Assembly: GCA_036898135.1 (NCBI GenBank)
Contig: CM072511.1
Coordinates: forward strand, 157,059,872-157,123,871
Direction of reading: 5' to 3'
Length of the DNA stretch: 64,000 nt
Source: Oncomelania hupensis
Taxonomy: Eukaryota; Mollusca; Gastropoda; Littorinimorpha; Pomatiopsidae
Below are positions 43,765 through 63,826 of the stretch, in pieces (the stretch's first letter is position 1; the number at the start of each line of letters is the position of its first letter). The translations under genes and the position numbers were made by a program. Under the pieces are notes generated by a model. That model was not told the DNA's origin, searched no databases, and saw nothing but the letters and a program-made list of their open reading frames with translations.

Positions 43765-44797
43765 TGTCATGAATTGGCTAGTTTTACACTGCCCAGTGAC
43801 TATTTAGCCATGTGTAGTAATTGTAACAGTAGAGAGTTAGTATAGTACACAGCAGCAAGTAAATTACACAGCAAGCCACACACCGCGAGCCCGACCCACG
43901 CTCCGCAGTGAGTCAGCACTTGAGTTTTGAATCTGACCAGTTTAACCAATCAGAAGCAGGCTTAGCGGTAGAGCAGTTCTGACTGTGTCAGAGCCACACA
44001 CAGTTTGAATCAGTCGTGTGTGAGACGAGGTAGAGGCAACATCTCCACAGCTAGAGAAATCTCTACACTCATAGACCAGGACGCAGGACTTAGGAATCTT
44101 AGAATTCTCTCAAGTCACAACGGGCCTGAACTTGTCAAACAGGTAAATGAACACCCTTCTGTTTCATCGTGATATATTTGTATTATTGTTGAAATTATGT
44201 TTGAAGAATTTGCTATGCATAAATGTGAATTGTTAATCCGAATTTGCGGGACCACGTGGAAGAGCCTACCACGAGGCGAAACACGACCGGTTGCGCCGCC
44301 ATGTTGTATCCCGTACGGAACCACTGTTGTTTAACTTATATGTATGTTTGCAGACCAGTGGTTGTACCACTGAATGTTTATATTATTATTAATTCTGTAT
44401 GTGTATAGTTAGACACGATTGATATTTATGTATGTATAGGAATTTAGAGTGAGATTCCAGTGGACCCCGGAAGTAGCAGAATGTTCGTCGCTTATGTATA
44501 GAGATGTGGAGCTATCACTGAGGGGCTACTTGGCTTTCAGTGAGACGCTCTGCACAAACCGATTATTCAGGGTTGTGCAGAATTTCGTCTCTTATATTAC
44601 AGACGAGCAGGCGAGCTATCCCGAGCTATCCCGAGCTATCCCGAGCTATCCTGTGTGCCCCACTCCACAGAAACGACTAGTTGGTTGAGGAGACTCTACC
44701 GCACAAGACGGAAAGAGCTGCCTTGAAAGACACCCTGTCAGACCCCACAGCGTGGCAAGGGAACCCAACTACACAACTACAAAGGTGTACCAGAAGC
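43765..44797. mobile_element. Family A solo LTR, left part (interrupted)
   Basis: It begins TGTCATG, complementary at six of seven positions to the right terminus CGTGACA (60674-60680), and is flanked by CATCC at 43760-43764 and 60681-60685. Without the nested array it would be about 1,550 bp. Only one LTR copy is present, so its internal region has been lost or never arrived, the usual result of LTR-LTR recombination. It contains four tandem copies of CGAGCTATCC (about 44613-44652) and a GAAGAGCCT...AGGCGAAAC hairpin at 44259-44282. The interruption is at GAAGC (44793-44797). Confidence 0.88.
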
Positions 44798-46433
44798 TGT
44801 CACGAAGAAAGGGATTTGGGGAAAGGGGGTAAGCTCTTAATCTCTAGCGCTGTGTTATCTCCTTTGATAGACTAACGTGCGATGACATTCCAGAGATTAA
44901 AGCAAGGCCAAATTAATAAGTGATAAATAGAGTAAAGACGAGGAGGAAAAGTAAATGTACTAGTTAAGAAATTCACAGTCAAAGGCCAGTCAAGGGAATT
45001 GCGATTTCTGTAACTATCTACTTTTAATAATTGAAAAGGGAGAGTCTAGGTCAAATTGTTCTATAGTGATTCATTGGCGTGGCGTCTCTAGTACTGAGTA
45101 GTCCGGTGATATTCGGGAAAGTCAATCTTATGGGTACTAGAGCTATCGTAGACTGATCACATCACAGGGTGAGAGAGTATCTGTATGGGGGCCAGAGTTT
45201 CTGTGATAATCTGGCGAGTGGGGGGTCTCTCAGGCTTGGGCACTTAGCTGTGGACTGCAGTGCGGCGAATTGTCCAGGATCCTCTGGATGGCTTGCCAGT
45301 GATGGTGCAAGCGTGGTTGGAAATATGCAGGTCAGTGGTCACGCGGGGATGACTCACGGATCACGAGTGCTAGTGGTGTTGTTGTGTTGTGGTACAGGCG
45401 TTGAACTTGGCTTACGTGGCTAGCCGGTTCAGAAATTGCGAAGTCCCAAATCACGCGTCTCATTGACCTCCCGGGTTGTTGGGGGCCTGCAGCGGGTCAG
45501 CGATTGGGAGATGATACCAGTCCGGGGCAATGCGTCCGGCACAGGAACCCGTCTGCAACGTGTACAGACGCTGTATCAGCTGGGGATAGGGATAATGCGA
45601 ATTCCGGGCCTGTTGTACAGTCACCCTTCTCAGAATTCAAATTGGTGTGACCGGTCAAGAGTTGAATCAGTGCACATACCAACAGTCAAACAATGCTACT
45701 AGATTTACTGGGCCAAAGTGGGGGTTACTGGCAGCCACTAGTAAAAGTACATTCGGCGCATTTAGGATGGGGATGGCAACAGGGCAAATATTTATACATC
45801 GGGAGGCATGGGGGAAAGCAATAATAGGGGTACAGGACAAATGGGTTGTAGGTCTGGGCCGTACTTGGGATTCTAATCTATAGGGAGGGGGTAGCATGGC
45901 ATGGGATATTTATACATGGGGCAACGGAGTATACAAGCATAAATTCAAACATGTCATGAGTTATGTACAAGGTAGAAAGTATGTGCAAGGGAGAAAACAC
46001 AAGTCATAGCAATACATCAAAGCAAATTATAAACATGGACCTACATACTGACAGGACGCATGAACATGATGGCGAACGACGGGTGATGGGGTTGCTATAT
46101 GACCACGAGTAAATTCCCTCTCTTACCTTGGTTTAAGACGGGTGGAAGCACAAGGATACTGACGAAACTCAGAGGTCGCTCGGTGATGGCGGCGTGGATT
46201 CGAACAGGTTGTGACTTCGAGGCAGGGAAGTTAGCATCTGACACTAAGCCTTGGTCAGTAGCAGACTTTAAGGCGATCCTGGGGGCGGGGCTTAAGAGAC
46301 TGTGCGAGCCTGCTAGGTAGTGATGGCTGGTCAAGAGGAATGATGGCTGGTTTGAAGCGATCGTCGCTGGCGGTGCGGGGTGGTCGAATGGTTGCAGCCG
46401 GGCCTCAGGGGTGCAATTGTCCGCCTCGTCACA
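44798..46433 (-). repeat. LTR 1 (3' LTR of copy 1)
   Basis: 1,636 bp, TGTCACGA at the left and TCGTCACA at the right, so on the minus strand it reads TGTGACGA...TCGTGACA. TATAAATA boxes on the minus strand lie at 45789-45796 and 45907-45914, and ATTAAA at 45023-45028 is a candidate poly(A) signal. This gives a U3-R-U5 order from right to left. Open frames inside the LTR (for example 45169-45423) recur in each LTR and are not genes. Confidence 0.92.
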
Positions 46434-46448
46434 GAGGCCCCCCCAAGG
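46434..46448 (-). other. Polypurine tract, copy 1
   Basis: Minus strand CCTTGGGGGGGCCTC directly abuts the TGTGACGA start of the 3' LTR, as expected for the plus-strand primer of an LTR retroelement. Confidence 0.85.
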
Positions 46449-46622
46449 GAAAAGGCGAGGACGTAGGACTCGACGAAGGCGCGGCCAATCAGCTCTGAGG
46501 TCGGCTGCCGGGTGCGACGATGGGTTGTGATGATCCGGGTGATGCGGGGCGATGCAGGGTTCCGGGTACGGTAGCGGATGCCCAAGGCTGGGGTCCGCGG
46601 AGCTGCCGGGTTTCGGCTACGG

Positions 46623-49017
46623 TTAGTGGGCGGCGGCAGGAATGAAGGCTGGGGCGTCGGCCCTCAGGGGCGACTCGATGGAGTCGGTGGCGGGGTGACG
46701 GCTGAGGAAGTCTGCGCCGTGGTTGTCTTTTCCAGGGATGTGTTCCAGCTGGAAAGAGTATGCCTGGAGCAGCAGAGCCCACCTCATTAGCCGGGCGTTG
46801 AGCGATTTGGATGTCGCCAGGAAGGAAAGCGGCTGATGATCCACTTGGACTGTAAAGTGCGAACCGTAGAGATACAGTTGGAACTTCTGGACTGCCCAGA
46901 CGAGGGCGAGACACTCCTTCTCCGAGGTGGCGTAGTTTTGTTCGGCCGGCTTGAGTTTCCGGCTGGCGTACGCGACGGGGAAGAGCGTCGGGGCGTCCGA
47001 GGAGTCCCGTTGGAGCAGAACGGCTCCGAGGCCTACGTCGCTGGCGTCTGTGCGCAGGACGAAGGGTTGTCCGTGGTTGGGGAGTCGTAGGACTGGCTGG
47101 GACGTCAGCTTGTCCTTGAGCTCCTGGAAGGCAGCTTCGCATTGCGGGGTCCAGATGACTCGGTCCGGTGCGGTTTTCCGGGTTAGGCTTGATAGTGGCG
47201 CGGCGATCCCGTTGTAGCCGGGTACAAACTTCTGATAGAAGCCACTCAGTCCCAGGAAGGACTGAACATCTTTCTTGGTCTTGGGGCGTGGCGCGTCTCG
47301 AAGGCGCTGGACGGTCTTTTCCAGAGGCCGGAGCTGTCCACGGCTGATGGTGTGGCCGAGAAATTCCAGCTCTTGATAGCCGAACTGGCATTTGGTCGGC
47401 CGGGCAGTAAGGCCAGCTTCTCTGAGGCGGCGCAAGAGTTGGCGCACCACTCGCAGGTGCTCCTCCCATGTCTCCGTTGCGACGAGTATGTCGTCCATAA
47501 AAGAGTGTATGAACGGACAGTGGAGGGGGTCCAACAGCTTCCGCATCATCGTGCTGAAAATACTTGGGGCATTGTGCAGACCAAACGGCAGAACGTTAAA
47601 TTCATAGTGGCCGTCCATCGTGCTGAAGGCTAGGTACTGGCGGGATGAAGGGTGCACGGGAATCTGATAAAAGCCTTTGCTCAGATCCACCCTGGAGAAG
47701 TATCGGGCGGATTGTAGCTTTGCGAACAAGTCCGTGGGGTCGGATAGGGGTCCGGGCACGAACTGGGTTACAAGGTTCAACTGCCGGAAGTCGATACAGA
47801 GGCGATGTTCTCCGCTGGGCTTCCGTGATAGAACTATTCCTGCGCTGTAGGGGGAACGGGAGGGAGCGATGACTCCGGCTTGTAGCAGAGCCTCTACTTC
47901 CGTTCTTACTACTTGCTGCTGGGAAAGTGGGACGGGGTACGGTTTCTGGCGGACGGGAGTGGGGTCCGTTAGGGTTAGTCGGACTTCTTCTAGGTCCGTC
48001 CTCCCAGGAATGTCGGTGAGGACTTCCCTGTGTTCTGCTACGATGGCGCGTAGCTGGTGTTGCTGGCCGGCGGGAAGTGAGGGGTCCAGAGAGACGTCCC
48101 GGAAGGATTCCTTCCCTTTTAGTGGAAATTCGGCGACGCCGGTCTCTGTGCCATCCACCTCGACGGCCAGCGCGACCGTGAGTAGTGAGTGGGAGTCTGG
48201 GGCGGGTGCAGGTTGCTCCAGGTACCGCTTGAGCAGATTGATGTGGTGGGTCCTGGGTTTTCCGCCTACCTCGATGCGGTAGGTGGTGCGCGAGAGCTTC
48301 TCGAGCACCGGGTAGGGTCCCTGCCAAGCTATGTCTAGCTTGTTCGTGCCGCTGGGGAGAAGCAGTAGGACTTGGTCTCCTACCTGTAGCTCTCGGTCCC
48401 GGGCGCGGCGGTTGTGGTAGCGGGCTTGTCGCTCTCTCGCCTTCTTCAGGTTGGCGGAGGCGGCTTTCCATGTTGCCTTGAGGGTTTCTTGTAGCTTCGT
48501 GACGTATTTTGTAGCGTCGACCGGTGCCTCGTCCAGTTTGGCGTCGGTCCAGCTACGTCGTAAGGCGGCTAGTGGTCCGGAAAGGGGTCTTCCGAAAAGC
48601 AGCGTGGAAGGCGTGTATCCGGTGGAGGTGTGCGGGGTCTCTCGATACGCGAAGAGCGCTGACGCGACGTATGTGTCCCACGCTTCCGGCTGTTCGTCGG
48701 CGATCTTGCGGATAATCGAGATAAGTGTCCCGTTTAGGCGCTCGACCTGTCCGTTGCTAGCGGGGTGGTAGGGTGGAGTCCGGATATGGCGGATGCGGAG
48801 TAGTTGAAAAACCTCCTGCATAAGTTTTCCGGTGAACTGGGACCCGTTGTCGGTCAGGATGTTGTCCGGGAATCCGACTCGAGTGAATATGGTGACGAGC
48901 GCGTCGGCGACTCGGGCGGCGTCGATCTTCGGTAGAGGAACGGCTTCGCACCACATCGAGCAGGCGTCGACGAGGGTTAGTAGGTACTGGTTCCGCTTCT
49001 TGGTCCGCGGGAGGGGT
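46623..49017 (-). pseudogene. pol: Copy 1 pol, 3' part: integrase core, RT, RNase H
   Basis: A 777-codon frame (start used 48956; coding continues upstream to the break near 49020). Residues: integrase core with ILTDNGSQFTG (D36) and NGQVERLNG (E72), spacing D-35-E. Integrase C-terminal GPY-type module around 200-245 (QGPYPVLEKL). RT from about 340, with RVDLSKGFYQIP (catalytic D424) and FMDD at 487-490. A tether/RNase H segment from about 590, with RTDASDVGLGAV (D637), EKECLALVWAV and VQVDHQPLSFL, ends HGADFLSRHP. Integrase preceding RT is the reverse of ordinary Ty3/gypsy. The first catalytic Asp lies just beyond a one-base deletion near 49021 (compare 55887), so integrase is split. RT and RNase H are uninterrupted. 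Confidence 0.92.
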
Positions 49018-49018
49018 C

Positions 49019-49522
49019 CTACAAGTCAACAGCCACTCGCTGGAAGGGCGTTCCGACAACGACGGTGGGGCTGATAGTGACCGGGACGGTGTGATGGCGG
49101 GGCGAGTATCGTTGGCACTGGCTACAGGACTTGACGTAGCGCTTCACGTCATCGGTCATCCCGGGCCAGTGATACTGAGCGCTGATTCGTAGGGTGGTCG
49201 CTCCGATGCCCATATGTCCGCTTAGGGGCATGCTATGGCCAAGTTCCAGGACTTGGGGGCGAAGTGTCGCAGGCACGACTAATTGAGTATGGTCGTCCTT
49301 CTGGCGGAAGAGGAGTCCGTCTTCGACGAAAAAGTCCCCGGACTTGGGTGGAGTGCGTGCGGCGGGAAGCTTTCCGTAGCACTTGCGGAGGGTGACGTCG
49401 CTTTCTTGGGCCTTCCGGATCTGTTCCGGCATCTGGTTGGGTATCGGAGGTGGAGTCGCGGCTGTTTTCGCCTGTGCGCGCGTCTGGACGGCGGCCATCG
49501 ATTCCACGGGCTGGGGCGGCAT
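49019..49522 (-). pseudogene. pol: Copy 1 pol: integrase zinc-binding domain
   Basis: In frame from MPPQPVESMAAV to FQRVAVDL (stop at the 49021 frameshift). It carries the HHCC zinc finger: H at 49237, H at 49216, and the Cys pair in CSQCQ near 49125-49115, with YHWPGMTDDVKRYV between. This domain multimerises integrase and binds LTR ends. A one-base deletion near 49527 (CATCCC versus CATCCCC in copy 2) separates it from the protease upstream. Confidence 0.88.
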
Positions 49523-49525
49523 CCC

Positions 49526-49900
49526 AAGAAAACGTATCGGCATCCTAAAATTAAGTCGTACAGGGGCTGGTCCATTACTGCAGCTTGAATGGTCCCCGTT
49601 ACGTATCGGCTGGTGACTTGGATCCGGGCTATAGGGAGCGTGGTGCTGGGTTGGGACGCGTCGGCCAACTTCAGGGTGATAGTCTCGCCGGTCAGGTCTT
49701 GTTCTCTGATGAGCGAGCGGCGGACGACGGCGTCGAAGGTAAGTCCAGTGTCGTAAAGACAGTGGGCTGGGCGATCGTTGACTGTCACTTGCTCGGTGAC
49801 GGCCGGTCGATCGGCGGGAGTAGCGACGGGGGTGACAGGGGTCCCGTCGGGGGTAACTTGGCGTAGGGCTAGTACGGTACCTTGTTTGCGACGCTGGTCG
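49526..49900 (-). pseudogene. pro: Copy 1 retroviral-type aspartic protease
   Basis: The active-site triad DTG is at 49752-49744, in CLYDTGLTFDAVV. About 68 residues later comes LYDLILGCRYVFLG with the conserved ILG (about 49551-49543). The enzyme would act as a homodimer to cut the gag-pol polyprotein. In this copy it is in frame with the zinc knuckle upstream, implying gag and pro are one reading frame. In copy 2 the DTG region is out of frame. Confidence 0.85.
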
Positions 49901-49914
49901 CTGATGCGTCGAAA

Positions 49915-50520
49915 ACATTTCTCCCGGGTGTGTCCTCTGCGTTGGCAGTAGCCGCAGTAGAGCTCTGTGCTCCGCTTCCCTGGCTCTGCTGTGAGGGTTG
50001 GGCGTCCTTTGGGCGGCGGTGGACGGTGGTTCGCCGGCGGGACTGGCCGGCGAGGCGGGTGGCGGGTATCTGGCGACGAGGGTGCGGGGGGATCACGGCG
50101 AGGCTGTCTGTCGTCGGGATGGGCGGTGAGGTATCGATCCGCGACGATGATCAAGTCTTCAAGGCGAGCGGCGCCTTGTTCGGCGGCGAATGTCCGGAGT
50201 TCCGCCGGCATTGTGCCTCGGAGTTGCTCGGCGAGCATCAACTCTAGTAATCCGTCATAGGTCCTGGGTTCGTCAGTTTGCTCAATCCATTTATCCCGTA
50301 GCGTAGCTAGACGGTCGGCAAACTGCGTGAACTTCTCCCCTCTCTCTCTCCGGGAGTTCCGGAAACTCTTGCGATAGTGCTCACCTGAGAGCTCAAAGCC
50401 ATGTAGTAGGGCTCTCTTGAGGGCGGGATAGTCTCCCTCCTCGGAAGTCGGTGTCTTGGCCAGAATCTCATAAGCCTTTCCCTTGAGGCCATGACTGAGC
50501 TTGCGATACCAGAACTGGGG
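49915..50520 (-). pseudogene. gag: Copy 1 gag: SCAN-like capsid and zinc knuckle
   Basis: From DPQFWYRKLSHGL through YRKSFRNSRRERGEKFTQF, LRDKWIEQ, LMLAEQLRGTMPAELR to IIVADRYLTAH. This pattern (FR..R...GE....A..L..L...W, then EQ....LP/MP.ELR) is that of SCAN domains and their gypsy capsid ancestors. A proline-rich linker and a CX2CX4HX4C nucleocapsid knuckle (CGYCQRRGHTREKC, 49956-49915) follow. The frame is cut on its 5' side by a two-base deletion near 50524 (CAACCG versus CAAGACCG in copy 2). Confidence 0.88.
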
Positions 50521-50521
50521 G

Positions 50522-51209
50522 TCAACCGTTTTCTCTCGCGACTCGCTCGAATCGGGCGAGATAGACTTCAATAGTTTCGTCCCGTTCGACGAATGGGTCC
50601 AGGGGGAAGTTCATCCCCGGAATCGGCGGGGGGGGGGGGGGTGCGGGTATTCCGGCGCTGGTGGCGAAGCTGGGGGCGATGAGCGAATAGTCTTCGCTAG
50701 CCGGCGATGCGATCCCTAAATCGCGGCGGTCGCGCTCAAGTTGGAGGAGTGCTTGGCGCCGTTCGAGCTCCCTGTCTTTTCTCTTCTCTTCGAGTGCCGC
50801 GACCCTCTCGTCCTCCTCCTTCTTCCTTGCGGCGGCCCTCTCCTCCTCTGCTATTCTCTCTTTCGCCTCCTCTCTTCTCCGCTCGGCGGCTCTCTCCTCC
50901 TCTGCAAGCTTCCGGGCGGCGGCCCGTTCCTCCGCGGCGAGGCGCTCTTTCTCTTCCTCTTTCCTCCGGGCGGCGGCCCGTTCCTCAGCGGCGAGGCGCT
51001 CTTTCTCCTCCTCCTTCTTCAGTGGCTCCTCTTTCTTCCTCCTGCCTCTTCGCATCTCGCTCTTTGGCCCTCTCCTCCCTCTTCACCTTTTCCTCTGCCA
51101 CGTCAGCCTCCACGTTCGCCAAGACGTAGTCTTTGAGTTCGGTGCCGGCGAGCCCTAAGCTCTCGCCAATACTCTTGTACTTAAGAGCAAGCTCTCCCCG
51201 GTCGGCCAT
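50522..51209 (-). pseudogene. gag: Copy 1 gag N-terminus: charged coiled coil
   Basis: Starts MADRGELALKYKSIGESLGL at 51209 and continues as about 120 residues of Glu/Arg/Lys/Ala heptad-like repeats (KERLAAEERAAARRKEEE pattern), then a proline run over a poly-G tract (50627-50641) and MNFPLDPFVERDETIEVYLARF. A small indel near 51023 (GTGGCTCC versus GTGCCGCTCC) splits it into two frames (50985-51209 and 50522-51055). The E/R-rich coiled coil before the capsid is shared by Gmr1-like gag proteins of other animals, as far as I recall; function is probably particle assembly. Confidence 0.8.
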
Positions 51210-51522
51210 GGTAAGAGAGGTAACTTACCCTGCAAAAGGTCCTAACCGGATGAGGGGTGCACCCGAGGGGTATACTGACGGAAAACAGGGGGGTGGGCTG
51301 GATGAGCTACGATGAAAACTGCAAAGGGGCGAATACAACACAACCACAAAGACAAAATGCAATCAATCAAAAAATCACAAAAAATGAACGCAAGAAAAAA
51401 GCCTGTTGAGAGATCACCACTCGGGAAAGCCAGTAAGGGACCTATGGGGCTATGCTAACTACTACTAGGCCTAGTGGGCTGGGTCCTATCTATACTGGGC
51501 TGGGGTGGAAATCTAGCTAAGT
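51210..51522 (-). other. 5' leader of copy 1
   Basis: Untranslated leader between the primer-binding region and gag. A-rich stretches (complement of 51340-51400) may hold packaging signals; no structure is demonstrable. Confidence 0.5.
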
Positions 51523-51653
51523 CCTAAGTCTAGTCAAGTTGGGATGGGAGCCTAAGTCTTTTGTCTCGTTGGTTGGAGGGGGATACCTAAGTCTTCTGGT
51601 CTCGTCGGGTTGGAGGGGGAAAACCTAAGTCTTTGGTCTCGTCGGGGTCGCCA
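51523..51653 (-). repeat. Leader repeat array ending in the primer-binding site, copy 1
   Basis: Four imperfect units each start CCTAAGTC(T) on the plus strand: 51523-51550, 51551-51585, 51586-51623, 51624-51653. The last three contain GTCTCGTYGG. The unit nearest the LTR ends in CCA and is the functional-looking primer-binding site, so the others are PBS-like decoys or remnants. The same array is present in copy 2. Confidence 0.75.
51637..51653 (-). other. Primer-binding site, copy 1
   Basis: Minus strand TGGCGACCCCGACGAGA lies 7 bases inside the 5' LTR end. It begins with TGG as expected for pairing with a tRNA CCA end. The complement GGGGTCGCCA resembles the 3' acceptor end of some animal tRNA-Arg (GTGGTCGCCA), so tRNA-Arg priming is a tentative suggestion. 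Confidence 0.65.
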
Positions 51654-51660
51654 AAATTAA

Positions 51661-53296
51661 TGTCACGAAGAAAGGGATTTGGGGAAAGGGGGTAAGCTCT
51701 TAATCTCTAGCGCTGTGTTATCTCCTTTGATAGACTAACGTGCGATGACATTCCAGAGATTAAAGCAAGGCCAAATTAATAAGTGATAAATAGAGTAAAG
51801 ACGAGGAGGAAAAGTAAATGTACTAGTTAAGAAATTCACAGTCAAAGGCCAGTCAAGGGAATTGCGATTTCTGTAACTATCTACTTTTAATAATTGAAAA
51901 GGGAGAGTCTAGGTCAAATTGTTCTATAGTGATTCATTGGCGTGGCGTCTCTAGTACTGAGTAGTCCGGTGATATTCGGGAAAGTCAATCTTATGGGTAC
52001 TAGAGCTATCGTAGACTGATCACATCACAGGGTGAGAGAGTATCTGTATGGGGGCCAGAGTTTCTGTGATAATCTGGCGAGTGGGGGGTCTCTCAGGCTT
52101 GGGCACTTAGCTGTGGACTGCAGTGCGGCGAATTGTCCAGGATCCTCTGGATGGCTTGCCAGTGATGGTGCAAGCGTGGTTGGAAATATGCAGGTCAGTG
52201 GTCACGCGGGGATGACTCACGGATCACGAGTGCTAGTGGTGTTGTTGTGTTGTGGTACAGGCGTTGAACTTGGCTTACGTGGCTAGCCGGTTCAGAAATT
52301 GCGAAGTCCCAAATCACGCGTCTCATTGACCTCCCGGGTTGTTGGGGGCCTGCAGCGGGTCAGCGATTGGGAGATGATACCAGTCCGGGGCAATGCGTCC
52401 GGCACAGGAACCCGTCTGCAACGTGTACAGACGCTGTATCAGCTGGGGATAGGGATAATGCGAATTCCGGGCCTGTTGTACAGTCACCCTTCTCAGAATT
52501 CAAATTGGTGTGACCGGTCAAGAGTTGAATCAGTGCACATACCAACAGTCAAACAATGCTACTAGATTTACTGGGCCAAAGTGGGGGTTACTGGCAGCCA
52601 CTAGTAAAAGTACATTCGGCGCATTTAGGATGGGGATGGCAACAGGGCAAATATTTATACATCGGGAGGCATGGGGGAAAGCAATAATAGGGGTACAGGA
52701 CAAATGGGTTGTAGGTCTGGGCCGTACTTGGGATTCTAATCTATAGGGAGGGGGTAGCATGGCATGGGATATTTATACATGGGGCAACGGAGTATACAAG
52801 CATAAATTCAAACATGTCATGAGTTATGTACAAGGTAGAAAGTATGTGCAAGGGAGAAAACACAAGTCATAGCAATACATCAAAGCAAAATTATAAACAT
52901 GGACCTACATACTGACAGGACGCATGAACATGATGGCGAACGACGGGTGATGGGGTTGCTATATGACCACGAGTAAATTCCCTCTCTTACCTTGGTTTAA
53001 GACGGGTGGAAGCACAAGGATACTACGAAACTCAGAGGTCGCTCGGTGATGGCGGCGTGGATTCGAACAGGTTGTGACTTCGAGGCAGGGAAGTTAGCAT
53101 CTGACACTAAGCCTTGGTCAGTAGCAGACTTTAAGGCGATCCTGGGGGCGGGGCTTAAGAGACTGTGCGAGCCTGCTAGGTAGTGATGGCTGGTCAAGAG
53201 GAATGATGGCTGGTTTGAAGCGATCGTCGCTGGCGGTGCGGGGTGGTCGAATGGTTGCAGCCGGGCCTCAGGGGTGCAATTGTCCGCCTCGTCACA
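51661..53296 (-). repeat. LTR 2 (shared: 5' LTR of copy 1, 3' LTR of copy 2)
   Basis: 1,636 bp. Compared with LTR 1 it shows an extra A near 52889 and a missing G near 53024, and I saw no substitution. It is bounded on its left by the copy 1 primer-binding region and on its right by the copy 2 polypurine tract. It therefore serves both copies. Confidence 0.92.
52652..52777 (-). promoter_or_regulatory. Duplicated TATA box in LTR 2
   Basis: Two TATAAATA boxes on the minus strand (52652-52659 and 52770-52777), each within a similar ATGTATAAATATYYS context, 118 bp apart. They would drive transcription of copy 1 toward lower coordinates. Equivalent pairs occur in LTR 1 and LTR 3. Confidence 0.55.
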
Positions 53297-53311
53297 GAGG
53301 CCCCCCCAAGG
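53297..53311 (-). other. Polypurine tract, copy 2
   Basis: Same CCTTGGGGGGGCCTC adjoining LTR 2 as in copy 1. Confidence 0.85.
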
Positions 53312-53485
53312 GAAAAGGCGAGGACGTAGGACTCGACGAAGGCGCGGCCAATCAGCTCTGAGGTCGGCTGCCGGGTGCGACGATGGGTTGTGATGATCCG
53401 GGTGATGCGGGGCGATGCAGGGTTCCGGGTACGGTAGCGGATGCCCAAGGCTGGGGTCCGCGGAGCTGCCGGGTTTCGGCTACGG

Positions 53486-56023
53486 TTAGTGGGCGGCGGC
53501 AGGAATGAAGGCTGGGGCGTCGGCCCTCAGGGGCGACTCGATGGAGTCGGTGGCGGGGTGACGGCTGAGGAAGTCTGCGCCGTGGTTGTCTTTTCCAGGG
53601 ATGTGTTCCAGCTGGAAAGAGTATGCCTGGAGCAGCAGAGCCCACCTCATTAGCCGGGCGTTGAGCGATTTGGATGTCGCCAGGAAGGAAAGCGGCTGAT
53701 GATCCACTTGGACTGTAAAGTGCGAACCGTAGAGATACAGTTGGAACTTCTGGACTGCCCAGACGAGGGCGAGACACTCCTTCTCCGAGGTGGCGTAGTT
53801 TTGTTCGGCCGGCTTGAGTTTCCGGCTGGCGTACGCGACGGGGAAGAGCGTCGGGGCGTCCGAGGAGTCCCGTTGGAGCAGAACGGCTCCGAGGCCTACG
53901 TCGCTGGCGTCTGTGCGCAGGACGAAGGGTTGTCCGTGGTTGGGGAGTCGTAGGACTGGCTGGGACGTCAGCTTGTCCTTGAGCTCCTGGAAGGCAGCTT
54001 CGCATTGCGGGGTCCAGATGACTCGGTCCGGTGCGGTTTTCCGGGTTAGGCTTGATAGTGGCGCGGCGATCCCGTTGTAGCCGGGTACAAACTTCTGATA
54101 GAAGCCACTCAGTCCCAGGAAGGACTGAACATCTTTCTTGGTCTTGGGGCGTGGCGCGTCTCGAAGGCGCTGGACGGTCTTTTCCAGAGGCCGGAGCTGT
54201 CCACGGCTGATGGTGTGGCCGAGAAATTCCAGCTCTTGATAGCCGAACTGGCATTTGGTCGGCCGGGCAGTAAGGCCAGCTTCTCTGAGGCGGCGCAAGA
54301 GTTGGCGCACCACTCGCAGGTGCTCCTCCCATGTCTCCGTTGCGACGAGTATGTCGTCCATAAAAGAGTGTATGAACGGACAGTGGAGGGGGTCCAACAG
54401 CTTCCGCATCATCGTGCTGAAAATACTTGGGGCATTGTGCAGACCAAACGGCAGAACGTTAAATTCATAGTGGCCGTCCATCGTGCTGAAGGCTAGGTAC
54501 TGGCGGGATGAAGGGTGCACGGGATCTGATAAAAGCCTTTGCTCAGATCCACCCTGGAGAAGTATCGGGCGGATTGTAGCTTTGCGAACAAGTCCGTGGG
54601 GTCGGATAGGGGTCCGGGCACGAACTGGGTTACAAGGTTCAACTGCCGGAAGTCGATACAGAGGCGATGTTCTCCGCTGGGCTTCCGTGATAGAACTATT
54701 CCTGCGCTGTAGGGGGAACGGGAGGGAGCGATGACTCCGGCTTGTAGCAGAGCCTCTACTTCCGTTCTTACTACTTGCTGCTGGGAAAGTGGGACGGGGT
54801 ACGGTTTCTGGCGGACGGGAGTGGGGTCCGTTAGGGTTAGTCGGACTTCTTCTAGGTCCGTCCTCCCAGGAATGTCGGTGAGGACTTCCCTGTGTTCTGC
54901 TACGATGGCGCGTAGCTGGTGTTGCTGGCCGGCGGGAAGTGAGGGGGTCCAGAGAGACGTCCCGGAAGGATTCCTTCCCTTTTAGTGGAAATTCGGCGAC
55001 GCCGGTCTCTGTGCCATCCACCTCGACGGCCAGCGCGACCGTGAGTAGTGAGTGGGAGTCTGGGGCGGGTGCAGGTTGCTCCAGGTACCGCTTGAGCAGA
55101 TTGATGTGGTGGGTCCTGGGTTTTCCGCCTACCTCGATGCGGTAGGTGGTGCGCGAGAGCTTCTCGAGCACCGGGTAGGGTCCCTGCCAAGCTATGTCTA
55201 GCTTGTTCGTGCCGCTGGGGAGAAGCAGTAGGACTTGGTCTCCTACCTGTAGCTCTCGGTCCCGGGCGCGGCGGTTGTGGTAGCGGGCTTGTCGCTCTCT
55301 CGCCTTCTTCAGGTTGGCGGAGGCGGCTTTCCATGTTGCCTTGAGGGTTTCTTGTAGCTTCGTGACGTATTTTGTAGCGTCGACCGGTGCCTCGTCCAGT
55401 TTGGCGTCGGTCCAGCTACGTCGTAAGGCGGCTAGTGGTCCGGAAAGGGGTCTTCCGAAAAGCAGCGTGGAAGGCGTGTATCCGGTGGAGGTGTGCGGGG
55501 TCTCTCGATACGCGAAGAGCGCTGACGCGACGTATGTGTCCCACGCTTCCGGCTGTTCGTCGGCGATCTTGCGGATAATCGAGATAAGTGTCCCGTTTAG
55601 GCGCTCGACCTGTCCGTTGCTAGCGGGGTGGTAGGGTGGAGTCCGGATATGGCGGATGCGGAGTAGTTGAAAAACCTCCTGCATAAGTTTTCCGGTGAAC
55701 TGGGACCCGTTGTCGGTCAGGATGTTGTCCGGGAATCCGACTCGAGTGAATATGGTGACGAGCGCGTCGGCGACTCGGGCGGCGTCGATCTTCGGTAGAG
55801 GAACGGCTTCGCACCACATCGAGCAGGCGTCGACGAGGGTTAGTAGGTACTGGTTCCGCTTCTTGGTCCGCGGGAGGGGTCCTACAATGTCAACAGCCAC
55901 TCGCTGGAAGGGCGTTCCGACAACGACGGTGGGGCTGATAGTGACCGGGACGGTGTGATGGCGGGGCGAGTATCGTTGGCACTGGCTACAGGACTTGACG
56001 TAGCGCTTCACGTCATCGGTCAT
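53486..56023 (-). pseudogene. pol: Copy 2 pol: integrase, RT, RNase H (RT partly out of frame)
   Basis: An 845-codon frame. The integrase core is complete here: RVAVDIVGPLP (D45), ILTDNGSQFTG (D104) and NGQVERLNG (E140), a D-58-D-35-E spacing, preceded by the CSQCQ half of the zinc finger. An inserted G near 54943 shifts the frame and a deleted A near 54522 restores it, so about 140 codons are out of frame. These cover the linker after integrase and the RT fingers up to motif A (RVDLSKGFYQIP is lost). FMDD and RNase H are in frame. The open frame therefore looks intact but encodes a defective RT. Confidence 0.9.
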
Positions 56024-57017
56024 CCCCGGGCCAGTGATACTGAGCGCTGATTCGTAGGGTGGTCGCTCCGATGCCCATATGTCCGCTTAGGGGCATGCTA
56101 TGGCCAAGTTCCAGGACTTGGGGGCGAAGTGTCGCAGGCACGACTAATTGAGTATGGTCGTCCTTCTGGCGGAAGAGGAGTCCGTCTTCGACGAAAAAGT
56201 CCCCGGACTTGGGTGGAGTGCGTGCGGCGGGAAGCTTTCCGTAGCACTTGCGGAGGGTGACGTCGCTTTCTTGGGCCTTCCGGATCTGTTCCGGCATCTG
56301 GTTGGGTATCGGAGGTGGAGTCGCGGCTGTTTTCGCCTGTGCGCGCGTCTGGACGGCGGCCATCGATTCCACGGGCTGGGGCGGCATCCCCAAGAAAACG
56401 TATCGGCATCCTAAAATTAAGTCGTACAGGGGCTGGTCCATTACTGCAGCTTGAATGGTCCCCGTTACGTATCGGCTGGTGACTTGGATCCGGGCTATAG
56501 GGAGCGTGGTGCTGGGTTGGGACGGGCCAACTTCAGGGTGATAGTCTCGCCGGTCAGGTCTTGTTCTCTGATGAGCGAGCGGCGGACGACGGCGTCGAAG
56601 GTAAGTCCAGTGTCGTAAAGACAGTGGGCTGGGCGATCGTTGACTGTCACTTGCTCGGTGACGGCCGGTCGATCGGCGGGAAGTAGCGACGGGGGTGACA
56701 GGGGTCCCGTCGGGGGTAACTTGGCGTAGGGCTAGTACGGTACCTTGTTTGCGACGCTGGTCGCTGATGCGTCGAAAACATTTCTCCCGGGTGTGTCCTC
56801 TGCGTTGGCAGTAGCCGCAGTAGAGCTCTGTGCTCCGCTTCCCTGGCTCTGCTGTGAGGGTTGGGCGTCCTTTGGGCGGCGGTGGACGGTGGTTCGCCGG
56901 CGGGACTGGCCGGCGAGGCGGGTGGCGGGTATCTGGCGACGAGGGTGCGGGGGGATCACGGCGAGGCTGTCTGTCGTCGGGATGGGCGGTGAGGTATCGA
57001 TCCGCGACGATGATCAA
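56013..57017 (-). pseudogene. pro: Copy 2 zinc knuckle, protease region, integrase N-terminus
   Basis: A 334-codon frame holding CGYCQRRGHTREKC, then an out-of-frame stretch between an extra A near 56683 and a short deletion near 56524 (GACGGGCC versus GACGCGTCGGCC). This removes the DTG triad. It is then in frame from PSQPSTTLPIARIQ through YDLILGCRYVFLGMPPQPV to QYHWPG, ending at an extra C near 56027. It shows that protease and integrase are continuous in one frame at 56388, where copy 1 is broken. Confidence 0.85.
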
Positions 57018-57475
57018 GTCTTCAGAGCGGCGCCTTGTTCGGCGGCGAATGTCCGGAGTTCCGCCGGCATTGTGCCTCGGAGTTGCTCGGCGAGCATCAA
57101 CTCTAGTAATCCGTCATAGGTCCTGGGTTCGTCAGTTTGCTCAATCCATTTATCCCGTAGCGTAGCTAGACGGTCGGCAAACTGCGTGAACTTCTCCCCT
57201 CTCTCTCTCCGGGAGTTCCGGAAACTCTTGCGATAGTGCTCACCTGAGAGCTCAAAGCCATGTAGTAGGGCTCTCTTGAGGGCGGGATAGTCTCCCTCCT
57301 CGGAAGTCGGTGTCTTGGCCAGAATCTCATAAGCCTTTCCCTTGAGGCCATGACTGAGCTTGCGATACCAGAACTGGGGGTCAAGACCGTTTTCTCTCGC
57401 GACTCGCTCGAATCGGGCGAGATAGACTTCAATAGTTTCGTCCCGTTCGACGAATGGGTCCAGGGGGAAGTTCAT
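57014..57475 (-). pseudogene. gag: Copy 2 gag: SCAN-like capsid
   Basis: A 153-codon frame from MNFPLDPFVERDETIEVYL through ENGLDPQFWYRK to ELRTFAAEQGAA, uninterrupted across the point where copy 1 lost two bases. It ends at a four-base deletion near 57025 (TTCAGAGCGG versus TTCAAGGCGAGCGG in copy 1). Confidence 0.87.
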
Positions 57476-58070
57476 CCCCGGAATCGGCGGGGGGGGGGGG
57501 GTGCGGGTATTCCGGCGCTGGTGGGAAGCTGGGGGCGATGAGCGAATAGTCTTCGCTAGCCGGCGATGCGATCCCTAAATCGCGGCGGTCGCGCTCAAGT
57601 TGGAGGAGTGCTTGGCGCCGTTCGAGCTCCCTGTCTTTTCTCTTCTCTTCGAGTGCCGCGACCCTCTCGTCCTCCTCCTTCTTCCTTGCGGCGGCCCTCT
57701 CCTCCTCTGCTATTCTCTCTTTCGCCTCCTCTCTTCTCCGCTCGGCGGCTCTCTCCTCCTCTGCAAGCTTCCGGGCGGCGGCCCGTTCCTCCGCGGCGAG
57801 GCGCTCTTTCTCTTCCTCTTTCCTCCGGGCGGCGGCCCGTTCCTCAGCGGCGAGGCGCTCTTTCTCCTCCTCCTTCTTCAGTGCCGCTCCTCTTTCTTCC
57901 TCCTGCCTCTTCGCATCTCGCTCTTTGGCCCTCTCCTCCCTCTTCACCTTTTCCTCTGCCACGTCAGCCTCCACGTTCGCCAAGACGTAGTCTTTGAGTT
58001 CGGTGCCGGCGAGCCCTAAGCTCTCGCCAATACTCTTGTACTTAAGAGCAAGCTCTCCCCGGTCGGCCAT
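57429..58070 (-). pseudogene. gag: Copy 2 gag N-terminus: charged coiled coil
   Basis: A 213-codon frame starting MADRGELALKYKSIGESLGL. The coiled coil is uninterrupted where copy 1 is broken (KRQEEERGAALKKEEE). A one-base loss near 57523 (GTGGGAAG versus GTGGCGAAG) shifts the frame just before the proline run. Confidence 0.85.
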
Positions 58071-58383
58071 GGTAAGAGAGGTAACTTACCCTGCAAAAGG
58101 TCCTAACCGGATGAGGGGTGCACCCGAGGGGTATACTGACGGAAAACAGGGGGGTGGGCTGGATGAGCTACGATGAAAACTGCAAAGGGGCGAATACAAC
58201 ACAACCACAAAGACAAAATGCAATCAATCAAAAAATCACAAAAAATGAACGCAAGAAAAAAGCCTGTTGAGAGATCACCACTCGGGAAAGCCAGTAAGGG
58301 ACCTATGGGGCTATGCTAACTACTACTAGGCCTAGTGGGCTGGGTCCTATCTATACTGGGCTGGGGTGGAAATCTAGCTAAGT

Positions 58384-58514
58384 CCTAAGTCTAGTCAAGT
58401 TGGGATGGGAGCCTAAGTCTTTTGTCTCGTTGGTTGGAGGGGGATACCTAAGTCTTCTGGTCTCGTCGGGTTGGAGGGGGAAAACCTAAGTCTTTGGTCT
58501 CGTCGGGGTCGCCA
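58384..58514 (-). repeat. Leader repeats and primer-binding site, copy 2
   Basis: Same four-unit CCTAAGTC array as copy 1. The unit nearest the LTR ends in the primer-binding site at 58498-58514 (minus strand TGGCGACCCCGACGAGA), 7 bases from LTR 3. Confidence 0.75.
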
Positions 58515-58521
58515 AAATTAA

Positions 58522-60158
58522 TGTTCACGAAGAAAGGGATTTGGGGAAAGGGGGTAAGCTCTTAATCTCTAGCGCTGTGTTATCTCCTTTGATAGACTAA
58601 CGTGCGATGACATTCCAGAGATTAAAGCAAGGCCAAATTAATAAGTGATAAATAGAGTAAAGACGAGGAGGAAAAGTAAATGTACTAGTTAAGAAATTCA
58701 CAGTCAAAGGCCAGTCAAGGGAATTGCGATTTCTGTAACTATCTACTTTTAATAATTGAAAAGGGAGAGTCTAGGTCAAATTGTTCTATAGTGATTCATT
58801 GGCGTGGCGTCTCTAGTACTGAGTAGTCCGGTGATATTCGGGAAAGTCAATCTTATGGGTACTAGAGCTATCGTAGACTGATCACATCACAGGGTGAGAG
58901 AGTATCTGTATGGGGGCCAGAGTTTCTGTGATAATCTGGCGAGTGGGGGGTCTCTCAGGCTTGGGCACTTAGCTGTGGACTGCAGTGCGGCGAATTGTCC
59001 AGGATCCTCTGGATGGCTTGCCAGGATGGTGCAAGCGTGGTTGGAAATATGCAGGTCAGTGGTCACGCGGGGATGACTCACGGATCACGAGTGCTAGTGG
59101 TGTTGTTGTGTTGTGGTACAGGCGTTGAACTTGGCTTACGTGGCTAGCCGGTTCAGAAATTGCGAAGTCCCAAATCACGCGTCTCATTGACCTCCCGGGT
59201 TGTTGGGGGCCTGCAGCGGGTCAGCGATTGGGAGATGATACCAGTCCGGGGCAATGCGTCCGGCACAGGAACCCGTCTGCAACGTGTACAGACGCTGTAT
59301 CAGCTGGGGATAGGGATAATGCGAATTCCGGGCCTGTTGTACAGTCACCCTTCTCAGAATTCAAATTGGTGTGACCGGTCAAGAGTTGAATCAGTGCACA
59401 TACCAACAGTCAAACAATGCTACTAGATTTACTGGGCCAAAGTGGGGGTTACTGGCAGCCACTAGTAAAAGTACATTCGGCGCATTTAGGATGGGGATGG
59501 CAACAGGGCAAATATTTATACATCGGGAGGCATGGGGGAAAGCAATAATAGGGGTACAGGACAAATGGGTTGTAGGTCTGGGCCGTACTTGGGATTCTAA
59601 TCTATAGGGAGGGGGTAGCATGGCATGGGATATTTATACATGGGGCAACGGAGTATACAAGCATAAATTCAAACATGTCATGAGTTATGTACAAGGTAGA
59701 AAGTATGTGCAAGGGAGAAAACACAAGTCATAGCAATACATCAAAGCAAAATTATAAACATGGACCTACATACTGACAGGACGCATGAACATGATGGCGA
59801 ACGACGGGTGATGGGGTTGCTATATGACCACGAGTAAATTCCCTCTCTTACCTTGGTTTAAGACGGGTGGAAGCACAAGGATACTGACGAAACTCAGAGG
59901 TCGCTCGGTGATGGCGGCGTGGATTCGAACAGGTTGTGACTTCGAGGCAGGGAAGTTAGCATCTGACACTAAGCCTTGGTCAGTAGCAGACTTTAAGGCG
60001 ATCCTGGGGGCGGGGCTTAAGAGACTGTGCGAGCCTGCTAGGTAGTGATGGCTGGTCAAGAGGAATGATGGCTGGTTTGAAGCGATCGTCGCTGGCGGTG
60101 CGGGGTGGTCGAATGGTTGCAGCCGGGCCTCAGGGGTGCAATTGTCCGCCTCGTCACA
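58522..60158 (-). repeat. LTR 3 (outer 5' LTR of the array)
   Basis: 1,637 bp, starting TGTTCACGA (one extra T) and ending TCGTCACA. The only other difference noticed is a two-base deletion near 59023 (CCAGGATGG versus CCAGTGATGG). The TSD GAAGC (60159-60163) and family-A sequence follow directly, without any polypurine tract. This shows that the array ends here. Confidence 0.92.
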
Positions 60159-60680
60159 GAAGCTACCTCACAGAAGGACTTCGACCGCACCATAAGAAAG
60201 TTAAGTGTACACCCAGAAGTGCACTTAAACTGATCATTACAGGACCACAGTAGTCCAACTCTTCAGAAACTGTAAAACGGACCACAGTAGTCCAAATCTA
60301 CATGAAATATACTAGCAAAGTGCCCGAGGAAGAAATAACAGCTGCCTAGACTATCAGCGATCGAACTATTAGCATTGAAAGAGACTTTTTAAGTTAGATT
60401 AGTACTTAGAGAATCTTGTATAGAGTAGAAGAAATAAATGTGTGATTTTAACTGTTATCAAGTGGCTGGTCTACATATGATTCATAGCCGTGTGAAAGCT
60501 AGTGTGACAGTAATCTCTTACCATTTTTCTATCTATTTCTGTACCCCAACCTTAACACAGAACGAGCTAAACAAATAAATTTATTAAAGTAATTCATAGG
60601 GTGACTTACTAGCAGTTCCCACCGAATAAACGTGAGGGTCCATAATTCCATTGTGCAGAGCCCATAAACCCCACGTGACA
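60159..60680. mobile_element. Family A solo LTR, right part
   Basis: Continues the LTR interrupted at 44797, after the repeated GAAGC. 60188-60680 matches 1-502. Ends CCACGTGACA, followed by the TSD CATCC (60681-60685). AATAAA at 60433-60438 corresponds to 254-259. Confidence 0.88.
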
Positions 60681-62684: not shown

Positions 62685-63826
62685 AGTCACCGGCCTGTCC
62701 TGTCCTGTCCTGTCCCATAACCCGAAGGTCGTAGGGGCACCACAGATGATCGTTTAACCAGCATACTCCATCTTTCTCTGTCCTCAGCAGCCCTCATGGC
62801 TTCGCTCAGTGTCAAACCAGTCCATTCTCGAATGTTGTCCTCCCACCTCTTTTTCGGTCTCCCCCTTCTTCTACCTCCTTGCACTGTGCCTTGCAGAATG
62901 GTCTTTGCAAGGCCTGATGATCTGGTGACGTGGCCATACCATCGGAGTTTCCGTTTCTTCACCACTGTGAGCAGGTCATCGTGTTGTCCAATGGCTTGTG
63001 TGATGGTCTGTCGGACTTCGTCGTTGGTGATGTGTTGGGTATAGGAAATGCACAGAAGTCTTCTGTAGCACCTCATCTCCATGCTTTGTATTCTTCGTTG
63101 GAGATCTGCTGTGAGGGTCCATGCTTCGCAAGCATATAGGAAGATGGAGATGACCAGAGAGCGCAGCAGTCTTACTTTGGAATGTAGACTGATGGTTCTG
63201 TCTTTCCAAATGGGCTTCAACCTTGTCAGGGCAGCAGTTGTTTGTGCGATCCTGGAGAGGACTTCCTGTCGAGACCCATTGTCTGACACAATGGCTCCTA
63301 AATATTTGAAGCTGTGCACTGTGTTGAGGGATTGGCCTTGTACTTTGATGTCCGTGTTGATGCCATTGGTGTTGTTGGTCATCATTTTGGTCTTCTCTGC
63401 ACTTATTTCCATTCCATAAGCTCTGGAGGTGGTGTCAAGCCTCTGTACAAGCTGTTCAAGTTCTTGTTCCTCTCCAGCCAATCCATCAATATCATCCGCA
63501 AAACGAAGATTGGAGATTGCTCTGCCCCCTATGCTGACTGTGCCTTCGTGATCTGCAAGAGCATCTGACATGATGCGCTCTAGGAAGATGTTGAAGAGTG
63601 TTGGAGAGAGTAGGCATCCTTGACGCACACCGATTGTTGTTCTGAACCAGTTCCCGATGACGCTGTTATGGAGGACTGCACTGGTAGCCTTGTCATACAG
63701 GCTTTTGATGACTTCTATAATTTTAGGGCTGATGTTGTACACTTTCATGGTTGCCCATAGAGCTGCATGCCAGACTCGGTCAAATGCCTTCTTGAAGTCT
63801 ATGAACACATGATATAGTCACCGGCC
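62685..63826 (-). mobile_element. RTE-type LINE copy 2, 5'-truncated, with 11-bp TSD
   Basis: The element 62696-63815 is flanked by AGTCACCGGCC at 62685-62695 and 63816-63826. It is nearly identical to the copy at 5251-6650 but truncated further downstream, just before the FIDF motif. The 3' tail is AGGAC units rather than AGGAT. Confidence 0.93.
62687..63808 (-). pseudogene. RTE reverse transcriptase, severely N-truncated
   Basis: A 373-codon frame starting at FIDFKKAFDRV (catalytic Asp present) and including GVRQGCLLSP, RFADDID and the RKLRWYGHV...GRPKKRWED C-terminus. The RT fingers and the endonuclease are absent. The frame runs through the AGGAC tail (GYGTGQDRTGR) and stops at a TGA formed with the flanking TSD, because this tail lacks the TAG present in the other copy. 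Confidence 0.9.

What the first reader, a model, noticed from the sequence alone, without database searches (positions are those of the whole stretch)
46623..51209. Ty3/gypsy element with integrase upstream of reverse transcriptase
The minus-strand order is coiled-coil gag, SCAN-like capsid, zinc knuckle, protease (DTG), integrase (HHCC, then D-D-35-E, then a GPY-type module), RT (FMDD), RNase H. RT and RNase H sequences are clearly gypsy-like, but the Ty1/copia domain order applies. Such Gmr1-like elements were described mainly from deuterostomes. A copy in what appears to be a mollusc, probably in a single gag-pro-pol frame, extends or tests that picture.
Basis: partly seen in the sequence, partly recalled or inferred. 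Interest (0 to 1): 0.8.

Follow-up and report, generated by a model that had tools for sequence, protein, structure and literature searches.

The report
Integrase-first gypsy retrotransposon in mollusc
This is a recently active jumping element of a mollusc whose enzymes are of the common gypsy kind but sit in an unusual order (integrase before reverse transcriptase); that order is already known from several animal groups, so the element is a new member rather than a new kind.

Summary
On the minus strand the window carries a Ty3/gypsy LTR retrotransposon with SCAN-like capsid, zinc knuckle, protease, integrase, then RT and RNase H. It lies in a two-unit array (LTR-internal-LTR-internal-LTR, 44798-60158) inside one 5-bp target duplication. 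RT-RNase H and integrase both match yeast Ty3, in opposite order. The 120 listed homologs (of 1356) are integrase-first; 119 of 120 homologs of a control element are RT-first. RT-RNase H and integrase trees give the same 11-row clade, and integrase-first rows fall on one side of a branch against 21 RT-first references (supports 100 and 86), which argues against a join of two elements. The host is a mollusc (hemocyanin). Copies are young, with a primer site fitting tRNA-Arg(TCG). The window copy is not one open frame; 2 of 14 other copies are. Gmr1-like elements are in print for crustaceans and an annelid, so the deuterostome picture is out of date. Added here: mollusc members, an RT-less derivative keeping Gag-protease-integrase, and recurrent tandem arrays.

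The parts
58524..60158 (-). outer LTR, 5' in sense of the array (about 1.64 kb, TGTGACG...CGTGACA)
   Evidence: pairwise match; its inner end is placed from the match, not from an exact motif; outer end
53297..58523 (-). internal region of array unit 2 (frames broken)
51661..53296 (-). middle LTR, shared by the two units
51636..51653 (-). primer-binding site TGGCGACCCCGACGAGAC, 7 nt from the LTR; complement of the 3' end of tRNA-Arg(TCG) with CCA
46434..51660 (-). internal region of array unit 1 (the finding lies in it)
50522..51209 (-). gag N-terminal coiled-coil part (two ORFs in different frames; 33/54-nt repeats)
50119..50382 (-). SCAN-like capsid domain
   Evidence: Pfam PF02023, E 4.9e-8
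49915..49956 (-). zinc knuckle CX2CX4HX4C
49540..49791 (-). aspartic protease, DTG motif
   Evidence: Pfam gag-asp_proteas E 0.0024 (below its curated cut-off); motif
49097..49276 (-). integrase H2C2 zinc-binding domain
   Evidence: Pfam PF17921, E 1.7e-20
48741..48851 (-). integrase core, D-35-E spacing
   Evidence: Pfam rve E 3.9e-8; motif
48225..48320 (-). integrase C-terminal GPY/p58-like module
   Evidence: Pfam PF22938, E 3e-6
47346..47825 (-). reverse transcriptase (FMDD at 47490-47501)
   Evidence: Pfam RVT_1 E 3e-32; Ty3 match; motif
46758..47153 (-). RNase H; the frame ends at 46623
   Evidence: Pfam PF17917 E 8.3e-39 and PF17919 E 1.8e-38
46434..46448 (-). G-rich tract next to the 3' LTR, candidate polypurine tract (atypical, flanked by pyrimidines)
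44798..46433 (-). outer LTR, 3' in sense of the array
44793..44797 (.). target-site duplication GAAGC (plus strand), low side
60159..60163 (.). target-site duplication GAAGC, high side

Best explanation
It is a young member of the integrase-first (Gmr1-like) lineage of Ty3/gypsy LTR retrotransposons in a mollusc genome. Shown: the LTRs, a primer site fitting tRNA-Arg(TCG), the domains and their order, 5-bp target duplications, near-identical LTR pairs, 40 scored near-identical pol matches in the genome, and agreement of the RT-RNase H and integrase trees. Inferred: the element is transcribed, makes one Gag-Pro-Pol precursor that its protease cuts, is reverse transcribed from tRNA-Arg in Gag particles, and is inserted by its own integrase, which is made from a precursor where it precedes RT. 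The order most likely arose once by a rearrangement inside a gypsy pol and was inherited. The window copy is a two-unit array that entered as one insertion or grew from one, most simply by exchange between LTRs.
For: Pfam and motif order; Ty3 7q5b matches RT-RH at 597-1017 and IN at 1210-1454, where the window has IN before RT; 120 of 120 listed homologs integrase-first, 3 of them without an H2C2 match, against 119 of 120 RT-first, the other with one module only, for a control element; same 11-row clade in RT-RH and IN trees (100*, 99*); distance correlation 0.70, 0 of 999 permutations as high; integrase-first rows on one side in RT-RH (100*) and IN (86) trees with 21 RT-first references; SCAN in 11 of 18 integrase-first proteins and 0 of 20 RT-first ones; LTR pairs with 0-5 mismatches, 11 of 20 pairs none; 5-bp duplications at 10 of 12 places with both outer flanks; primer match.
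Against: The window copy has broken frames in both units. The integrase split is not starred (86), trees are quick ones without bootstrap, and long branches meet. 18 of the 21 RT-first references belong to one group, so the comparison is narrow. No named Gmr1, CsRN1, Osvaldo or copia reference was available, so Gmr1 membership rests on order, SCAN and the homolog set. The RT-RH test did not reject a tree with the window clade next to the RT-first side (p 0.288), so its place within the lineage is open. L043 and L044, counted as integrase-first in one tree each, were seen only in part.
Confidence: 0.94

Rival explanations
1. Chimera: integrase and RT come from two different elements joined by recent recombination or by the tandem array.
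For: The window does hold a tandem array, and the copy has frame changes between modules.
Against: Both internal regions lie between LTRs; two full-length copies elsewhere carry the same order in one frame; the same clade appears in both trees; 120 of 120 listed homologs share the order.
Confidence: 0.02
2. A Ty1/copia element, or a gypsy element that took a copia integrase.
For: Only the order resembles copia.
Against: RVT_1, RT_RNaseH, H2C2 and GPY/p58-type integrase, no RVT_2 match (0 of 19 members; RVT_2 is not fully specific, since 2 of 20 RT-first gypsy proteins match it weakly); Ty3 RT-RH at 281 bits and Ty3 integrase at 54 bits.
Confidence: 0.01
3. Integrase-first order arose more than once within gypsy, and the mollusc elements are an independent case, not of the Gmr1 clade.
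For: No Gmr1 reference could be placed in the tree; the integrase split is only 86; the place of the window clade is not fixed (p 0.288).
Against: RT-RH puts all 33 integrase-first rows (window, L042, L043 and 30 proteins, with named members from molluscs, ticks, shrimps and echinoderms) on one side at 100*; a SCAN capsid is shared by 11 of 18.
Confidence: 0.08

Closest known systems
Gmr1-like Ty3/gypsy elements (Goodwin and Poulter 2002; title seen in a reference list, paper not read)
   Same: Gypsy-type elements with integrase upstream of RT (PMC6238403 passage); capsid homologous to SCAN, as reported for Gmr1-like elements (PMC4592553 passage); one gag-pol product in other copies here, as the 'Gag and Pol' column (1506-1634 aa) for pufferfish Gmr elements suggests (PMC11117352 table passage).
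   Different: Host is a mollusc; LTRs 1.64 kb against 337-518 bp in the pufferfish table. Sequence distance to Gmr1 itself not measured.
Integrase-first proteins P0001-P0010 (P0009 named Biomphalaria glabrata)
   Same: Same clade in both trees, 58-69% RT-RH and 53-64% integrase identity.
   Different: Other sources; only P0009 of these ten has a host name in the listing.
RT-first gypsy elements with K02A2.6-like names from mussels, oysters, scallops and fishes (the link of that name to the Mag lineage is recalled)
   Same: Same modules, gypsy family.
   Different: RT-RH then integrase in 119 of 120; no SCAN match in any of 20 scanned, 18 of them from this list plus L046 and L047.
Ty3 (yeast)
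   Same: RT-RH and integrase both match.
   Different: Integrase lies after RNase H.

Membership tests
Ty3/gypsy | RT and RNase H of gypsy type | tested here: met
   RVT_1, PF17917, PF17919; best solved relative Ty3, E 2.9e-99
Ty3/gypsy | integrase with H2C2, D-35-E and GPY/p58-type end | tested here: met
   D-35-E also in 119-120 of 120 homologs by two patterns
Ty3/gypsy | RT before integrase (usual order) | tested here: not met
   the Gmr1 clade is the stated exception (PMC6238403 passage), so gypsy membership is kept on RT and integrase type
Gmr1-like | integrase upstream of RT in a gypsy-type element | tested here: met
Gmr1-like | capsid homologous to SCAN | tested here: met
   PF02023 E 4.9e-8, over its cut-off; link in print read as a passage in PMC4592553
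Gmr1-like | groups with Gmr1 in RT, RNase H and integrase trees | not testable with these tools
   no Gmr1 sequence held; the group of 33 integrase-first rows was tested instead
Ty1/copia | RVT_2-type RT | tested here: not met
   no RVT_2 match at E 0.01
LTR retrotransposon | LTRs, tRNA primer site, target duplication | tested here: met
LTR retrotransposon | polypurine tract | tested here: inconclusive
   G-run with flanking pyrimidines next to the 3' LTR

The most novel reading that the evidence does not exclude
Integrase-first order gives rise to mobile RT-less elements. When RT-RNase H is the last module, a deletion can remove it and leave Gag, protease and integrase in one frame with the old stop. 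Four places share one such deletion (five units, one junction). Over about 780 nt around the junction these units differ from each other by up to 36 of 778 positions (4.6%), while LTR pairs at three of the four places have 0-1 mismatch, so the derivative seems to have kept moving with RT borrowed from full-length relatives. A second deletion of RT-RNase H, with other ends, exists too.
Probability: 0.4. Interest if true: 0.5.

Novelty: new member of a known kind. Interest (0 to 1): 0.35.

Why it matters
The order itself is known, so the value lies in scope. A 2018 survey of mollusc LTR elements lists 21 gypsy clades without Gmr1, naming it only as an exception in the background (PMC6238403 passages). 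Yet this mollusc carries at least two clearly divergent integrase-first families (window and L042, 48% identical), and public proteins from ten named mollusc genera show the order. The lineage may have been overlooked, or may sit inside clades named otherwise, because that survey classifies by RT-RNase H (inference). If the RT-less derivative reading is right, domain order affects what kind of dependent element can arise, which could be tested across integrase-first and RT-first families.

Tried and rejected
Viral contigs gave no eukaryotic relative: two searches with single queries found none, and one with alignment A1 gave six loci with short integrase matches. A LINE protein search to name the host gave almost no host names and was replaced by hemocyanin. 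The one scan of prokaryote contigs, done in the hope of contaminant gypsy DNA, gave three RT-first references used in the trees. A programmed frameshift near the gag repeats was considered, because seven full-length copies split there; the frame step goes both ways between copies, so plain indels in a repeat fit better (my reading). The AU test of 'window clade plus RT-first rows' was not rejected (p 0.288); it concerns the place of the window clade, not single origin. A regular expression for D-35-E was off by one and corrected. Kuafuorterviruses were considered and left: the passages read report IADD, VADD or LADD where YXDD is usual, while the window has FMDD. A count of all copies by a junction pattern was asked four times and never answered. 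The protein query was the unit-2 ORF; for most listed rows the best local alignment covers only 35-42% of it, probably because that ORF changes frame in its middle (inference), so domain order was judged by separate domains from unit 1.
Full report
What is there. The finding's stretch is the gag-pol part of one unit of a longer insertion. Self-comparison of the window shows 8.5 kb repeated at a distance of 6.86 kb and a third copy of 1.64 kb. Read on the minus strand this is LTR, internal region, LTR, internal region, LTR at 44798-60158; the LTRs begin TGTGACG and end CGTGACA. The whole array is flanked by the 5-bp repeat GAAGC (plus strand). The two units show 17 indels and no substitution over 8513 aligned positions.

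Domains and order. Pfam finds SCAN, a protease-like match, H2C2, rve, p58-type integrase end, RVT_1 and RNase H in that order. The knuckle CX2CX4HX4C, DTG, D-35-E and FMDD are present. The protease match is weak (E 0.0024, under its cut-off). As assembled, 46623-51209 is five ORFs in three frames. Of the 20 units in fetched loci L009-L028, 14 have an internal region over 5.1 kb, one of them (L023) with other sequence in place of its start; 2 of these 14 have one open frame of 1536-1542 codons. So the single-frame guess holds for the family, not for this copy.

Gypsy, not copia. The best solved relative is Ty3 (7q5b): its residues 597-1017 match the window's RT-RNase H with 281 bits, and its residues 1210-1454 match the window's integrase with 54 bits. 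In Ty3 integrase follows RNase H; here it precedes RT. No RVT_2 (copia RT) match appears.

One lineage, not a join. A search with the unit-2 ORF of 845 aa gave 1356 proteins at E 1e-10 or better among 7980 scored candidates; 120 are listed. All 120 listed have integrase before RT: 117 with H2C2-core-GPY-RT-RH, 3 without the H2C2 match. Named hosts in the list include molluscs (Biomphalaria, Littorina, Batillaria, Mizuhopecten, Pecten, Ylistrum, Argopecten, Pinctada, Babylonia, Elysia), ticks, penaeid shrimps and echinoderms. As a control, a gypsy element from a Bathymodiolus symbiont record (L047; taken to be host DNA) was searched: of 120 listed homologs (of 4590) 119 are RT-RH then integrase and one shows only one module. 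Among 119 integrase-first proteins with both modules (1 of 120 dropped) plus the window, RT-RH and integrase distances correlate at 0.70, with 0 of 999 permutations as high. Trees of 47 rows each (window and 46 of 47 chosen homologs) give the same clade of window plus P0001-P0010 from RT-RH (100*) and from integrase (99*).

Against RT-first elements. With 21 RT-first references (17 proteins, L045, L046, L047, Ty3; 18 of them one group), the 33 integrase-first rows are one side of a branch in the RT-RH tree (100*) and in the integrase tree (86, not starred, long branches meeting). These are quick trees without bootstrap. The 33 rows hold L043 in the RT tree and L044 in the integrase tree, whose order was seen only in part; one reference (P0275) gave an over-long RT cut. 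A tree that holds the window clade next to the RT-first side is not rejected (p 0.288), so its depth within the lineage is open. SCAN is found in 11 of 18 integrase-first proteins (the 19th member is a pol piece without gag; some of the 18 are partial) and in 0 of 20 RT-first ones. A link between SCAN and the Gmr1-like capsid is in print (passage of PMC4592553, citing Emerson and Thomas 2011, which is not held).

Host. The assembly has 1.45 Gb in 428 contigs. Mollusc-type hemocyanin beta-sandwich domains occur in clusters (66 matches; 0 of 14 control genomes, whose nature is not shown, so the control is weak). Two exons of one unit match multi-domain hemocyanins, among them keyhole limpet KLH1; the second exon fits best the seventh of eight domains of 8trz and 3j32. 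This supports a mollusc; gastropod is likely but not shown.

Activity and life cycle. A 300-base pol probe gives 40 scored matches at about 100% identity, the window's two units among them, out of 1034 first-look candidates. LTR pairs differ by 0-5 substitutions and 0-11 gaps; 11 of 20 pairs have no substitution, some pairs being cut by the fetched ends. Ten of 12 places with both outer flanks have a 5-bp target duplication; L026 and L010 do not. The primer site TGGCGACCCCGACGAGAC follows in 23 of 26 occurrences of an LTR end plus TTAA, overlapping loci counted twice. Three exact matches of a tRNA-type pattern lie in the genome; the two fetched are tRNA-Arg(TCG) genes by ARAGORN, and their 3' end with CCA is the complement of the primer site. 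The polypurine tract is unclear.

Arrays. Besides the window, arrays lie at C1:128478767-128492020 (two RT-less units) and C2:14253381-14269754, and two LTRs with the start of a second unit at C12:27846334: 4 of 19 places seen, though pairs visible as neighbours were chosen for fetching. C1 and C2 also show one 5-bp duplication around the whole array. In C2 one unit has about 1.6 kb of other sequence in place of its first 478 nt, so its units are not alike. A primer-site pattern with one mismatch gave 85 matches; 78 look like element copies by their sequence variant, and these fall at 73 places, 4 of them arrays: spacings of 6.8 kb (four) and 5.8 kb (one, the C1 array), with one run of three (apart from C1 these were not fetched). 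Exchange between LTRs of one insertion explains like units inside a single duplication; insertion of a concatemer is not excluded.

RT-less derivative. Five units at four places lack RT and RNase H but keep H2C2, core and GPY at 96-100% identity; one unit has a frame change in the core. They align across the deletion with at most one gap and differ by 0-36 of about 770-870 positions. Two of the five have a single frame of 1162-1163 codons. LTR pairs at three of the four places have 0-1 mismatch; at L010 3 in 890, and L010 lacks a clear target duplication. This suggests long-lasting spread with RT supplied in trans (inference). A further locus (L025) has a different deletion of the same region.

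Other families here. Of 150 scored RNase H hits in the genome (12460 candidates; the window's own place is not among the 150), two were fetched. L042 is integrase-first and 48% identical to the window over 754 residues. L043 has RT-RH and no integrase match in the 1.5 kb after it. L044, from 150 scored H2C2 hits, has integrase and no RT match in the 1.8 kb before it. L043 and L044 fit integrase-first, but each was seen only in part.

Literature. Gmr1-like elements in protostomes were first claimed for crustaceans in 2013 (PMC3587641 passages), then for an annelid (PMC8220671 passages). A 2021 paper counts Gmr1 among clades present in several phyla but did not find it in its own annelid transcriptomes (PMC8556966 passages). 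The mollusc survey of 2018 lists 21 gypsy clades without Gmr1 (PMC6238403 passages). In the open-access library I found no description of Gmr1-like elements in a mollusc (searches, listings capped); papers outside that library were not seen.

Verdict. A real, recently active, integrase-first gypsy element in a mollusc; a new member of a known kind. The more interesting leads are the RT-less derivative and the recurrent tandem arrays.

Noticed in passing
L009, L010, L016/L017, L028 (units at four places): A shared deletion removes RT and RNase H but leaves Gag, protease and integrase; two of five units keep one open frame of 1162-1163 codons.
   Followed up: partly
window:44798-60158; G000 C1:128478767-128492020; C2:14253381-14269754; C12:27846334 onward; C2:60670993-60684604: Tandem LTR-internal-LTR-internal-LTR arrays recur in this family, with a 5-bp duplication around the whole array in the three checked; the last place listed is a run of three by primer-site spacing only.
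   Followed up: partly
G000 C2:14259765-14261348 (in L023/L024): About 1.6 kb of other sequence stands in place of the first 478 nt of one unit's internal region, including its primer site.
   Followed up: no
L042 (G000 C15:16798400-16802700): A second, divergent integrase-first family in the same genome, 48% identical over 754 residues of pol, with a long open frame.
   Followed up: partly
window:13591-14673: A tandem repeat whose copies match at distances that are mostly multiples of 24 nt, at 83-89% identity, open in several frames.
   Followed up: no
window:5262-6671 and 62687-63808 (minus): Two ORFs with a LINE-type reverse transcriptase (RVT_1, DUF6451), 96.7% identical over 1.1 kb of DNA.
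   Followed up: no
L026: The 3' LTR is followed by TTAA and then the AGT repeat of the other flank, with no 5-bp duplication; an odd integration end.
   Followed up: no
L045 (cyanobacterium MAG), L046 (Calditrichota MAG), L047 (Bathymodiolus symbiont): Gypsy retrotransposon DNA inside prokaryote genome records, probably eukaryotic contamination.
   Followed up: no
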